Source: Sunxiuqinia elliptica (GTDB taxonomy: Bacteria; Bacteroidota; Bacteroidia; Bacteroidales; Prolixibacteraceae). Taken from it: a stretch of 64,000 nucleotides of DNA. The translations under genes and the position numbers were made by a program. Positions 37,699 through 57,721 of this stretch are shown here, one piece after another (position 1 is the first letter of the stretch; every line of letters starts with the position of its first letter). The notes below the pieces were generated by a model. It saw only the letters and a list, made by a program, of their open reading frames with translations, had not been told where the DNA came from and did not search any database. The DNA lies in the NCBI RefSeq assembly GCF_900113005.1, contig NZ_FONW01000008.1, positions 62,001 through 126,000 of the forward strand. The letters are read 5' to 3'.

Positions 37699-38976
37699 TT
37701 ACTTTTTCTTGACCTTCAGTTCCAGATCATTAAAATCAGAGTCCGTCCAATCTTCTGAACGTAACGTATATTCTCCCGCACTTTCTTTCACATTGCGAAG
37801 TTCTGAGTTTTTCCAGCCAGAGCCATCGTTATGCTGGATGCGAATACGCCATTTCCCAGCTTTTGGTCCTTCAATGCTCTTTGTAAATGCAGTTCCATCA
37901 ACTTCGTAAGTTCCATTTCCTTTGGCAGCTCCCGATACAATGTACCTTTGTTTGTAGCTGGCATTCTTTCCAACCAAGGAGATTGTCCAGTTTCCAGGCC
38001 CATACTGCGCATTCAGCACACTGGGTGCATCGCTAACCGAATCAATGTCAACCCCATAAGTTGCTTCCTCAAAATCCTGTCCTTCTTCTCCGGCGCGGTC
38101 AGTACTATCCTGATCATCCAGAAAGTGAGTAAACTCGTGCAGAATTGTTGACTCTAAAAACAATTTATGGGCCGGCAAATCGGTTTTTGCCTTTTCATAA
38201 GCATTCACGATGGTATCATCAATTCGTAATTCCTGCGACCCGATGCCTGGCGAAAACTCGCCATTGGCGCCAGAGAGTGCCGTAACATTAATAATTGGCC
38301 CTTTCCCCCACTTCATTTCCTCGGCAATATCTTTTTTGGTGGCTCCCGTGTTAGTGCCATACTTATTGAGTGCTGCAAGTGCACGAGGATCGTTGTGCTT
38401 CTTGGGCATCTCACTTTTTACAAACGATGAAAAACGGATGTATTTCTTTTCATCTGTGGCGCCTATTTTAAATCGCTGTACCGGAGCCTGAGCCTCAGAA
38501 GCAACACGGCCCGAAGCCCTCTTCTGTCCATTGTTCCCAGCGATGAAACGACTCGAGGAATTAGCCAACTCCTGCCCTTTTTGATTGGCTTCAGCTTCCA
38601 AGCCTTGATTGTCATTCAACAGAGTTTGCCCAAACCGGTGTGTCGGTTTCACTCTCCCTTGGCGCTGTTGCTGTACATGCGCAAGCTCGTGCCCCAGCAG
38701 CTTTTGTCCTTCTGTTGTATTCGGTTTAAATTGCCCCGGCGCAAAGTGAATATTTTCTCCTCGAGTAAAAGCCTTCGCATTGAGCTGCCCCGCCTGCTTT
38801 GACTCTGGATGAATATTGACAGACGAAAGATCTTCGCCCAGTGACGACTCAGCCCGGTTTTGCAGGTCTTCGGAGAAGTGCTTGTTTTTCTTCTTCTGCC
38901 CGGTTTGTATTTGATTAGCCAAGGCCCGACCTTCTTCTTTTTCTTTTGTTTGTTTTTCAGTTCGCATAGCTGCCAT
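37699..38976 (-). CDS. eCIS cargo candidate: DUF4157 domain plus second HExxH metallopeptidase-like domain
   Basis: A 425-residue protein with no signal peptide. After a charged N-terminal segment, residues 34-135 form the DUF4157 (eCIS core) domain: GEDLSSVNIHPESKQAGQLN, FTRGENIHFAPGQF, LLGHELAHVQQQ with HELAH at 96-100, and a following LEAEAN. A second HExxH, HEFTH (281-285), lies in ESTILHEFTHFLDDQDS, with acidic residues at 304-305 as a possible third ligand. The last 90 residues are beta-rich and end in EDWTDSDFNDLELKV. DUF4157 marks many eCIS-delivered proteins, so as last gene after the AAA+ ATPase it is the likely payload. Target unknown. Confidence 0.8.
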   Translation of the reverse strand: MAAMRTEKQTKEKEEGRALANQIQTGQKKKNKHFSEDLQNRAESSLGEDLSSVNIHPESKQAGQLNAKAFTRGENIHFAPGQFKPNTTEGQKLLGHELAHVQQQRQGRVKPTHRFGQTLLNDNQGLEAEANQKGQELANSSSRFIAGNNGQKRASGRVASEAQAPVQRFKIGATDEKKYIRFSSFVKSEMPKKHNDPRALAALNKYGTNTGATKKDIAEEMKWGKGPIINVTALSGANGEFSPGIGSQELRIDDTIVNAYEKAKTDLPAHKLFLESTILHEFTHFLDDQDSTDRAGEEGQDFEEATYGVDIDSVSDAPSVLNAQYGPGNWTISLVGKNASYKQRYIVSGAAKGNGTYEVDGTAFTKSIEGPKAGKWRIRIQHNDGSGWKNSELRNVKESAGEYTLRSEDWTDSDFNDLELKVKKK

Positions 38977-38985
38977 TTTTTAACA

Positions 38986-40338
38986 TCAAACAGTTCGCCC
39001 TTCCTTCTGAAACTCTTTATGAACACCAGCAAGAAGGTCATTTTTAGCAATCTCTTTCGAGTTTTTCTTCAGAGTCATCAGTGAGGCATAGCCAACAGCA
39101 TTCATTATTGCCCCACCCGACAGTTCGTAGTTTTTGGCCAATTCATTTAAAGAAACATCTGGAGCCAAGGACGATTTTTCAGCAAAAGCTTGCTCCCAGA
39201 TTTTGAGTCGTTGCCCCGGTTTCGGAAGTGCAAAATTGATCATGTTATCAAAACGACGCGTAAAAGCATCATCCATATTATCTTTTTGATTGGATGCCAG
39301 CACTACCAGTCCATTGTAGTCTTCAATTCGCTGCAACAAGTAAGAAACTTCCTGATTTGCAAAGCGATCATGAGCATCAGAAACATTTGTTCGCTTTCCG
39401 AACAAGGCATCGGCCTCATCAAAAAACAAAATCCAGTTTTTATGCTCTGCCTGATCAAAAACAGCAGACAAATTCTTCTCGGTTTCTCCAATATACTTGG
39501 ACACCACCAAGGACAGATCAACCCGATACACATCCCGATTGGTATCTTTTCCCAACAAACAGGCGATCATCGTTTTCCCAGTTCCGGATGGCCCATAAAA
39601 CAGGCAGCGGTAGCCTTTGCGAAGTTTCTTACTCATCCCCCAATCATAAAGCAAGGCATTTCCATACTCCAACCAGGTTTTTATTTCATCAATCTGAATA
39701 CGCGTTTTATCATCAACGACCAAATCACTCCAATCCCGTTCGGTGGTAATTCGCTTAGCTGGAAAACGTGAGCTCATCACCGGCTGATGATATTCGCCCA
39801 TCGTCAGGTAATCCAACATATCGCGCGACAATTGAATTACTCCAGACAAAAACGGCTCCCCATCCGGAGCTGGATCAAGTTTTAAAATATGATGACGCGC
39901 AAAAATATGTTCTCCTTGAAAAAGTTTGGTCAGCCAAAAACGCTGCTCCAGGTGATTGCCCGCCATTAGAAACAAAAAGGTCTCTCCTGTTGGCAAAACA
40001 CCACTGTGATTCTTCCCAAGGATACCTCCAAACTCTGTCCATCCTCGATTTGTCATCTTATTTTCGATCATTAACGGATCGAGCAACTGAGGACGAATAT
40101 GCGGAATGAAAGCCAACATCAACAAAAGGCGCTCTGCAAAATCCAATTGGTAATAATTGATAAAAGCGGCATAAATCGAATCTTTTCCCTGATGCTTTGG
40201 CGCCTCAACCTCTTCAATGGATTGATACGAACACTCCTGCCCCATGTGCAATTTCAAACGGGTATCGAGTACCTTTGAAAACCAATTCAACTCCTGCTCC
40301 ATTGAAACAGCATTTTTATGTGCATTATCGGCTACCAT
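38986..40338 (-). CDS. AAA+ ATPase of the contractile injection system (Afp15/Pvc15-like)
   Basis: This 450-residue ATPase has a family-specific N-terminal domain (1-200), Walker A GPSGTGKT (249-256), Walker B FFDEAD (305-310) with ALFGKR following, and the arginine-finger region TRRFDNMINFALP. Every eCIS locus encodes one; in Photorhabdus it is needed for loading of cargo or particle maturation, though its mechanism is unresolved. The start overlaps the end of the tape-measure gene by 7 bp and the stop lies 10 bp from the DUF4157 gene, which supports a chaperone-cargo relation. Confidence 0.93.
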   Translation of the reverse strand: MVADNAHKNAVSMEQELNWFSKVLDTRLKLHMGQECSYQSIEEVEAPKHQGKDSIYAAFINYYQLDFAERLLLMLAFIPHIRPQLLDPLMIENKMTNRGWTEFGGILGKNHSGVLPTGETFLFLMAGNHLEQRFWLTKLFQGEHIFARHHILKLDPAPDGEPFLSGVIQLSRDMLDYLTMGEYHQPVMSSRFPAKRITTERDWSDLVVDDKTRIQIDEIKTWLEYGNALLYDWGMSKKLRKGYRCLFYGPSGTGKTMIACLLGKDTNRDVYRVDLSLVVSKYIGETEKNLSAVFDQAEHKNWILFFDEADALFGKRTNVSDAHDRFANQEVSYLLQRIEDYNGLVVLASNQKDNMDDAFTRRFDNMINFALPKPGQRLKIWEQAFAEKSSLAPDVSLNELAKNYELSGGAIMNAVGYASLMTLKKNSKEIAKNDLLAGVHKEFQKEGRTV

Positions 40339-57118: not shown

Positions 57119-57121
57119 ACC

Positions 57122-57688
57122 CTAACTTTTTAAGTTTGCTTCGAGCACAGGCGGTGCATCCATCTTGATGTTGTCATCGTAAATAGCCAACAATTTCACC
57201 TTATACATCACCGAGCTCATCAGCTTCGCTCCCAACGAAGCCCAAAGGTTATTCTGTTGCTCAAACGAGAGAGAGAAAAGTTCAACAGTCAATTTATCAA
57301 TCTGCTCTCCCAATTCAGGGTAAGCAGTTGGAGTAAACAAACTATGCGATTGGAAAAAATGAATAACGTAAGCAATAAACTTGAGTGACTCCCGGTAGGC
57401 AAACTCATCATCGCCAAAATTAGAAGAGAACAAAACATACAAATTAACCATCACTTTAGGGTCAGTCTTGGCAATTGTTCCTTGAGGAGTCTCCCGATAC
57501 AGGTTTTGGTTTTTCATAATCCGCTCCTCTTCAATATTCACCAGTGTCATGGCCAGTTTGCTCACCTGAAGTTTCCCATGCTTATCCAATACGGGAATCA
57601 ATTCCACCTTGTCTTCCAAGCCTGTCCTTAGTTTCAGATAATTATTAAGCTGAGATTTTAAAAAGAAAAGCGTTTGTTCGATCATCAT
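57122..57688 (-). CDS. DUF4255 tube-terminator/cap protein (Afp16/Pvc16-like)
   Basis: The protein is 188 residues from ATG 57686-57688 (MMIEQTLFFLKSQLNNYLKL); the longer frame to 57721 adds 11 unsupported residues. DUF4255 hallmarks: the N-terminal helix LFFLKSQLNNYLKLRTGLED, SKLAMTLVNIEEERIMKNQN and NLYVLFSSNFGDDEFAYRES. Afp16-type proteins bind the growing end of tube and sheath and fix length. It is the first gene of the operon; the sequence directly upstream is A/T-rich with no perfect -7 box on this strand. Confidence 0.92.
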   Translation of the reverse strand: MMIEQTLFFLKSQLNNYLKLRTGLEDKVELIPVLDKHGKLQVSKLAMTLVNIEEERIMKNQNLYRETPQGTIAKTDPKVMVNLYVLFSSNFGDDEFAYRESLKFIAYVIHFFQSHSLFTPTAYPELGEQIDKLTVELFSLSFEQQNNLWASLGAKLMSSVMYKVKLLAIYDDNIKMDAPPVLEANLKS

Positions 57689-57721
57689 AAAACAGATTAA
57701 ATGAGTGTATCGATATCGCAA

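What the first reader, a model, noticed from the sequence alone, without database searches (positions are those of the whole stretch)
37699..57721. Complete extracellular contractile injection system operon of Bacteroidota type
Sixteen minus-strand genes with gaps mostly under 30 bp encode cap, sheath, two tubes, DUF5908, LysM hub, VgrG-like spike, PAAR tip, gp25, two large baseplate proteins, tape measure, AAA+ ATPase and a DUF4157 protein, plus two unknowns. No capsid, terminase, lysis gene or T6SS membrane complex (TssJLM) is present. There is a single sheath gene and no classical fibre gene, unlike Afp/PVC, so target recognition may depend on one of the unknown proteins.
Basis: partly seen in the sequence, partly recalled or inferred. 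Interest (0 to 1): 0.85.

Follow-up and report, generated by a model that had tools for sequence, protein, structure and literature searches.

The report
AlgoCIS-type injection particle operon
A Bacteroidota genome carries a complete, single-cargo version of a known phage-tail-like syringe (the AlgoCIS kind), with a shorter tail fibre than its best-known relatives and a swappable predicted protease as its load; it is a tidy new member of a known family rather than something new.

Summary
Sixteen tightly packed minus-strand genes (37699-57685) encode a complete contractile injection system. Of nine products searched against PDB sequences, eight hit CIS proteins, best those of AlgoCIS (Algoriphagus) or the Anabaena thylakoid CIS; the ninth (cargo) hit nothing. 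The two 'unknowns' are named: gene 2 is related to second cap proteins (All3326, SalCis16b); the 915/901-aa gene is an Alg19/Cis19-type tail fibre, so a fibre gene exists. The last gene is a predicted cargo: eCIS_core plus a metallopeptidase-toxin domain; in same-genus genomes this slot holds other C-termini or nothing. The fibre lacks the PKD/Ig region carried by 10 of 18 compared fibres; 8 of 18 are short. The Alg11 cysteine pair needed for AlgoCIS firing has no counterpart here. HK97-type capsid, VipB and TssM profiles found nothing in the genome; hydropathy shows no clear membrane anchor. Both structure predictions failed (pLDDT about 35). Helical eBAP4 fibres are already in print, so this is a new member of a known kind. 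Release from the cell, protease activity and the target are inferred, not shown.

The parts
57122..57685 (-). cap (Pvc16_N; Alg16A / All3327 type), 187 aa
   Evidence: PF14065 6.4e-33 (scanned with the longer start); PDB 7b5i_AA 3.7e-17, 7adz_0A 1.1e-14; start moved from 57721
56069..57118 (-). second cap protein (cap-adaptor position), 349 aa
   Evidence: PDB 7b5i_AB All3326 9.7e-8, 9r9n_C SalCis16b cap 3.5e-5; Alg16B itself not among the 2 hits; no Pfam
54639..56048 (-). sheath, 469 aa
   Evidence: PF17482, PF04984; PDB 7adz_2A AlgoCIS sheath 1.3e-170, 7b5h_AO All3325 4.1e-162
54167..54598 (-). inner tube 1 (gp19 type)
   Evidence: PF06841 8e-52
53710..54156 (-). inner tube 2 / tube initiator (gp19 type, Alg5 position)
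   Evidence: PF06841 6e-40
53542..53706 (-). plug, DUF5908 = Alg6 family, 54 aa
   Evidence: PF19265 1.2e-19; PDB 7aef_t Algo6 5.4e-7, 7b5h_AL 6.2e-7
52802..53539 (-). hub / tube initiator (CIS_tube, Alg7 type)
   Evidence: PF19266 7.1e-48; LysM end seen by eye only
51051..52805 (-). spike (VgrG-like, Alg8 type), 584 aa
   Evidence: PF04717 2.7e-22; PDB 7aef_q (AlgoCIS baseplate entry) 2e-169, 7b5h_AJ 6e-156
50748..51038 (-). PAAR tip (Alg10 type)
   Evidence: PF05488 1.4e-25
50296..50721 (-). sheath initiator gp25 (Alg9 type)
   Evidence: PF04965 1e-23
47203..50292 (-). baseplate gp11 with cage region (Alg11 / All3317 type), 1029 aa
   Evidence: PF04865 9.3e-7; PDB 7b5h_AH 8.6e-132, 7aeb_G 1.8e-129
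44596..47199 (-). baseplate gp12 (Alg12 / All3315 type), 867 aa
   Evidence: PDB 7b5h_AD 3.5e-154, 7aeb_A 1.1e-142
41827..44532 (-). tail fibre of the Alg19 / Cis19 (eBAP4) type, short form without PKD/Ig region, 901 aa
   Evidence: PDB 9wt0_a 2e-58, 7b5h_AA 4.1e-34; alignment A1; start moved from 44574
40332..41813 (-). tape measure (CIS_TMP), 493 aa
   Evidence: PF19268 6.6e-120
38986..40338 (-). AAA+ ATPase (Pvc15 position), 450 aa
   Evidence: PF00004 2.4e-27
37699..38976 (-). predicted cargo: leader + eCIS_core (36-107) + Tox-MPTase3 (176-308), 425 aa
   Evidence: PF13699 4e-23, PF15639 8.1e-22; HELAH at 96 and HEFTH at 280; C-terminus differs in relatives

Best explanation
A complete contractile injection system of the AlgoCIS/tCIS kind. 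Sheath and tube assemble on a gp11/gp12 baseplate whose spike is plugged by the DUF5908 protein and tipped by PAAR; two cap proteins close the far end; the ATPase helps load the one eCIS_core-metallopeptidase cargo into the tube. Trimers of the short Alg19-like fibre sit on the baseplate corners. Most likely particles are set free when the producer lyses, fibre and/or cage touch a bacterial surface, the cage opens, the sheath contracts, and the cargo is released into the target envelope. Shown here: gene content, homology, conservation in the genus, exchange of the cargo's C-terminus. Inferred from relatives in print: assembly, loading, release, bacterial target, protease activity.
For: Eight of nine products searched in the PDB have AlgoCIS or tCIS chains as best hit; the cargo had none. 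Gene order and all structural genes recur in the two same-genus genomes whose loci are uninterrupted (G004, G005), and in the part of the operon that lies on the contig in G003 and G006, at 44-91% identity. 4 of 6 same-genus relatives have gp12. The own genome has one sheath and one eCIS_core match, both here. The cargo shares its first ~135 residues (48-50%) with the G006 and G003 cargo while the rest does not match (only 31-residue alignments at E 0.4-0.7); G004 has a third cargo and G005 none. In AlgoCIS two DUF4157 proteins of the cluster fill the tube (PMC8894135, passages) and Alg19 mediates binding to bacteria (PMC13314943, Results and Discussion). No product but gp11 reaches a mean hydropathy of 1.6 over 19 residues.
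Against: No particle, expression or release data; no lysis gene identified or searched for. The fibre lacks the PKD/Ig region, and the Alg11 pair C268-C1000, needed for AlgoCIS firing on cells, has no counterpart: C268 lies in a stretch absent here and gp11 has no cysteine after 862, so the AlgoCIS scheme may not carry over. gp11 has a borderline hydrophobic stretch in the cage region (1.69 at 488; 1.37-1.47 in four genus orthologues). For AlgoCIS, growth inhibition by Cgo1 did not depend on its metalloprotease motifs, and no tested bacterium was sensitive to the particles (PMC8894135, passages). In G005 the cargo is missing and the ATPase frame is shorter. Structure predictions were too poor to use.
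Confidence: 0.78

Rival explanations
1. A membrane-anchored CIS (T6SS-iv or tCIS mode): the machine stays in the producer, fixed through the baseplate or cage, and fires on contact or at cell death.
For: gp12 and gp11 score slightly better against the tCIS proteins than against AlgoCIS (518 vs 480 bits, 444 vs 436 bits); clade Ib holds T6SS-iv and MACs beside AlgoCIS (PMC8894135, passages). A weak hydrophobic stretch lies in the gp11 cage region.
Against: All 16 genes are accounted for without a Cis13-type anchor (Cis13 itself was not used as a query); gp12 is 867 aa against 1335 aa for All3315, so the tCIS anchoring extension is probably missing; no clear transmembrane segment by hydropathy. 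T6SS-iv anchoring genes were not searched for.
Confidence: 0.12
2. A cytoplasmic CIS that acts on the producer itself (Streptomyces-like), which would explain a fibre without adhesive domains.
For: Fibre without PKD/Ig region. The only neighbour tested as a possible immunity gene, the CPBP protease, has relatives in a genome without the operon.
Against: The fibre is kept at 70-71% over its whole length in four genus orthologues, which is hard to explain if nothing is bound; short fibre frames also occur in other Bacteroidia.
Confidence: 0.07
3. A tailocin or prophage remnant.
For: Sheath, spike and gp11 (3 of 9 products scanned) also match phage families of PHROGs.
Against: 6 of 9 products scanned have no PHROGs match; no HK97-type capsid in the genome; ten flanking proteins are not phage-like; no relative of the fibre in the viral collection.
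Confidence: 0.02

Closest known systems
AlgoCIS of Algoriphagus machipongonensis (PMC8894135, PMC13314943)
   Same: Plug, spike, cage-type gp11, gp12, sheath, cap and Alg19-type fibre homologues; DUF4157 cargo in the cluster
   Different: Fibre 901 against 1443 aa, no PKD/Ig region; sheath 469 against 692 aa; one DUF4157 protein instead of two; no C268/C1000 pair in gp11; the second cap protein did not hit Alg16B
Thylakoid CIS of Anabaena (PMC8894136)
   Same: Best hits for cap, second cap, gp11 and gp12; sheath of similar length (469 vs 484 aa)
   Different: No gene left for a Cis13 anchor, gp12 867 against 1335 aa, fibre 901 against 1476 aa
Afp / PVC (PDB 6rao, 6j0n)
   Same: Sheath, baseplate and spike homology at lower scores
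   Different: One sheath gene here against three sheath chains there; no Afp13-type fibre; longer gp11
eBAP4 fibres, including forms with helical extensions (PMC12923769, passages)
   Same: tCIS-crown type N-terminus; helical-extension forms of eBAP4 are already reported
   Different: The fold of the last ~240 residues is unassigned here; that they are helical rests on a low-confidence model
eCIS-associated toxins with DUF4157 (PMC8213781, PMC11297309, passages)
   Same: 3' end of the operon, eCIS_core before a toxin domain, hydrophilic leader (mean hydropathy -1.48 over 50 aa, lowest of 16 operon proteins)
   Different: The term 'tox-mptase' does not occur in the main text of either paper; net charge at residues 6-21 is 0, not positive

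Membership tests
CIS of the AlgoCIS/tCIS kind | Full sheath, tube, spike, plug, gp25, gp11/gp12, cap, TMP, ATPase set | tested here: met
   tubes, hub, PAAR, gp25, TMP and ATPase by Pfam only
CIS of the AlgoCIS/tCIS kind | Second cap protein (Alg16B or tCIS equivalent) | tested here: met
   All3326 9.7e-8 and SalCis16b 3.5e-5; Alg16B itself was not among the hits
CIS of the AlgoCIS/tCIS kind | Extended, cage-forming gp11 | tested here: met
   1029 aa; aligns with Alg11 residues 9-495 and 549-1036, so the cage domain (278-643 in the paper) is covered except about 50 residues
CIS of the AlgoCIS/tCIS kind | Alg19/Cis19-type fibre | tested here: met
   the PKD/Ig part of the long form is missing
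CIS of the AlgoCIS/tCIS kind | Place in the published subtype tree (Ib for AlgoCIS) | not tested
   full reference sequences of AlgoCIS, tCIS, MAC and T6SS-iv were not at hand
AlgoCIS proper | Alg11 C268-C1000 cysteine pair needed for firing | tested here: not met
   gp11 cysteines at 402, 757, 857, 862 only; C268 lies in an insertion absent here
tCIS | Cis13 transmembrane fibre and Cis12 extension | tested here: not met
   gp12 867 vs 1335 aa; no clear TM segment; all 16 genes accounted for, Cis13 not used as a query
eCIS (extracellular mode) | Release as free particles | not testable with these tools
   needs microscopy
[quoted passage not shown]
T6SS (i-iii) | VipB and membrane complex | tested here: not met
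   PF05943 and PF06761 0 matches in the own genome, E. coli control rang in both; TssN uninformative; TssJ/TssL not searched
Prophage | Capsid and terminase with the tail genes | tested here: not met
   PF05065 0 matches, controls rang; other capsid folds and terminase not searched genome-wide; ten flanking proteins not phage-like

The most novel reading that the evidence does not exclude
The lineage does without the adhesive PKD/Ig chain of the fibre and without the cage-to-iris cysteine pair, so recognition and triggering would run through the cage (gp11) and a conserved fibre stalk alone: a one-step recognition CIS, differing from the two-step AlgoCIS scheme.
Probability: 0.15. Interest if true: 0.5.

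Novelty: new member of a known kind. Interest (0 to 1): 0.27.

Why it matters
It gives a compact, single-cargo, short-fibre relative of AlgoCIS in what is probably the family Prolixibacteraceae; searches for eCIS with Prolixibacteraceae and for Sunxiuqinia with 'contractile' in the held library found no paper. Natural cargo variants within one genus, and short and long fibres within one family, allow one to ask which part of the baseplate decides the target and what the eCIS_core front half does.

Tried and rejected
Rejected: 'no fibre gene' (one search finds Alg19-type homology). Rejected: the CPBP protease next to the cargo (36759-37691) as its dedicated immunity gene, because relatives at 42-54% lie elsewhere in G001 (no operon), G003 and G006. 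Rejected: the gp11 hydrophobic stretch as a firm membrane anchor (orthologues weaker). Rejected: a window fibre cut short by a stop codon; four genus orthologues end at the same place.

Led nowhere: structure prediction of the cargo from one sequence (pLDDT 36.2) and of the fibre from two sequences (pLDDT 34.7), so no fold search was run. The viral collection scan with the fibre alignment gave 0 relatives among 34 pattern matches. The single genome-contig scan with gp12 confirmed 1 relative among 18 pattern matches, the Sunxiuqinia MAG contig. PDB search of the cargo: 0 hits up to E 1. Paper searches: eCIS with Prolixibacteraceae 0, Sunxiuqinia with contractile 0, contractile injection system with Salinibacter 0; the organism behind the 'SalCis' entries was not identified. 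NCBIfam gave no model above its cut-off for the eight proteins scanned. A promoter and terminator scan upstream of the cap was no richer than shuffles (6 promoter-like sites, shuffles 4.5 with sd 1.6; 0 terminator-like).
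Full report
Observation. The window holds 16 consecutive minus-strand genes between 37699 and 57685. Pfam names 13 of them at or above the curated cut-off; gene 2, gp12 and the 915-aa ORF have no match above it. With these, 13 of 15 gaps are below 30 bp. The ten flanking proteins scanned are transglutaminase-like, NlpC/P60, enolase-like, SelR, GNAT and Rce1-like on one side, and acetyl-CoA hydrolase, glyoxalase, carboxyl transferase and OAD gamma on the other.

What it is. Nine of the 16 products were searched against PDB sequences. 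Eight hit CIS proteins: second cap (All3326 9.7e-8; SalCis16b 3.5e-5), fibre (9wt0_a 2e-58; All3314 4.1e-34), gp12 (All3315 3.5e-154; Algo12 1.1e-142), gp11 (All3317 8.6e-132; 7aeb_G 1.8e-129), sheath (AlgoCIS 1.3e-170; All3325 4.1e-162), plug (Algo6 5.4e-7), cap (All3327 3.7e-17), spike (7aef_q of the AlgoCIS baseplate entry 2e-169). The ninth, the cargo, hit nothing up to E 1. That 9wt0_a is Alg19 is my reading: the chain is called PKD domain-containing protein and has 1443 aa, entry 9wt0 shares its Alg12 chain with 9wsz, and PMC13314943 gives Alg19 as 1443 residues. That 7aeb_G is Alg11 fits the position of its C268. Tubes, hub, PAAR, gp25, TMP and ATPase were named by Pfam only.

Organism. 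The own genome is 5.09 Mb in 26 contigs. The one named relative found, L053, is a contig labelled Sunxiuqinia sp. MAG (67% identity in gp12); its length and match position equal those of same-genus genome G003, contig C184, so the genus is probably Sunxiuqinia (Prolixibacteraceae). This is an inference.

Distribution. A gp12 match is present in 36 of 149 genomes, own genome included, and in 4 of 6 same-genus relatives (G001 and G002, given as 99% and 98% complete, lack it). Genus orthologues of the structural genes are 44-91% identical: lowest TMP (44-50%), second cap and DUF5908 (52%), highest tube 1 (91%) (the genes from cap to DUF5908 could be compared in G004 and G005 only, the rest in up to four genomes). 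On the promoter side the acetyl-CoA hydrolase gene is next to the operon in the window, G004 and G005; G001 and G002 have other genes beside it, and in G006 the hydrolase gene and the operon lie on different contigs.

Fibre. Twenty of the 35 other genomes with a gp12 match were fetched. Complete fibre frames of at least 800 aa came from 17 of the 20 loci; L037 and L045 (cut by contig ends) and L038 (no fibre on the contig) were dropped. With the window this makes 18 (A1): 10 are 1311-1498 aa and 8 are 873-957 aa. A loose PKD-like motif (W-x-F-G-D or W-x-F-x-D) occurs in 10 of 10 long and 0 of 8 short ones; Pfam PKD_4 matches 8 of 18 and PKD 6 of 18 members, none in the window's. The genus fibres keep the PGLEH element and end about 245 residues after it. 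Alignment columns 501-750 are the best conserved part of the five genus fibres (87-90% mean), the last columns the least (54%). In a sample of 395 Bacteroidia genomes 26 have a match to the fibre N-terminus (own included); of the other 25, 5 have their best match in an open frame below 1000 codons, two of these (G232, G524) matching only part of the query, so short forms recur. PMC12923769 (passages) already describes eBAP4 fibres with helical extensions and with chains of Ig, lectin and PKD modules. The fibre model has pLDDT 34.7 and cannot be used.

Cargo. The last gene has eCIS_core at 36-107 and Tox-MPTase3 at 176-308, with HELAH at 96 and HEFTH at 280. It is the only eCIS_core match of the genome. 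Of six same-genus relatives, 3 have a match to it (G003, G004, G006). G006 and G003 share residues 4-138 and 17-140 of the window cargo at 48% and 50% and are 88% alike to each other over 334 residues (the G003 frame is cut at a contig start), but their later part does not match the window's beyond 31-residue alignments at E 0.4-0.7. G004 shares only the core (42% over 65 residues) and continues with peptidoglycan-binding and metallopeptidase matches below the curated cut-offs. G005 has no match in its genome; its ATPase frame ends at 407 codons and the next gene is GTP cyclohydrolase I. In the genus the cargo follows the ATPase gene (window, G004, G006), whereas in all 11 loci outside the genus where both an eCIS_core-like cargo hit and the ATPase were seen the cargo lies between TMP and ATPase. 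Of five of those cargos scanned, all with eCIS_core, matches behind it were OmpA-like with metallopeptidase (2, below cut-off), peptidoglycan-binding (1), calpain-like (1) and none (1). The leader is the most hydrophilic of the 16 N-termini, which fits the published description of loading signals (PMC11297309, passages), though its charge at residues 6-21 is zero and not positive.

Mechanism. From PMC8894135 (passages) and PMC13314943 (Results and Discussion read): DUF4157 proteins fill the AlgoCIS tube; Alg19 trimers bridge baseplate wedges and are needed for binding to Echinicola; the cage opens before the iris; after firing the tube end lies in the periplasm; a C268A/C1000A mutant does not fire on cells. 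Here C268 falls in a stretch absent from the window gp11, and there is no cysteine after residue 862; the tCIS gp11 shown has no cysteine at that spot either. So the trigger route probably differs from AlgoCIS. The best reading remains a free particle acting on bacteria, inferred from kinship, from the lack of clear membrane segments and from peptidoglycan-binding matches in some relatives' cargos. Against it: no release evidence and no lysis gene; in PMC8894135 no tested bacterium was sensitive to AlgoCIS, and growth inhibition by Cgo1 was independent of its metalloprotease motifs.

Verdict. This is a new member of a known kind, with natural fibre and cargo variation that makes it a handy comparison, and of modest interest.

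Noticed in passing
L033:7975-10401 (G005): In one same-genus genome the ATPase frame is 407 instead of 450 codons and no cargo follows; the next gene is GTP cyclohydrolase I, which in G004 lies beyond the cargo and one further gene.
   Followed up: partly
L034:8201-8899: A 232-aa protein with a hydrophobic N-terminus (by eye) and a CBS-domain match follows the G004 cargo; it could be a cargo partner or an unrelated gene.
   Followed up: no
L040:13713-16334 and L041:13717-16374: Two family members carry short fibres of 873 and 885 aa with a different layout, without the PG[LA]EH element.
   Followed up: no
L039:7035-10427: In G070 the gene after the ATPase is a 1130-aa protein with a nonspecific endonuclease match and no eCIS_core match.
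   Followed up: no
L040, L041, L042, L043, L046-L052: In 11 loci outside the genus the eCIS_core-like cargo genes lie between TMP and ATPase, not after the ATPase as in the window's genus; four of them have two cargo-like genes.
   Followed up: partly
window 23205-24635: A DnaA-like replication initiator gene by its sequence (recalled, no profile search run).
   Followed up: no
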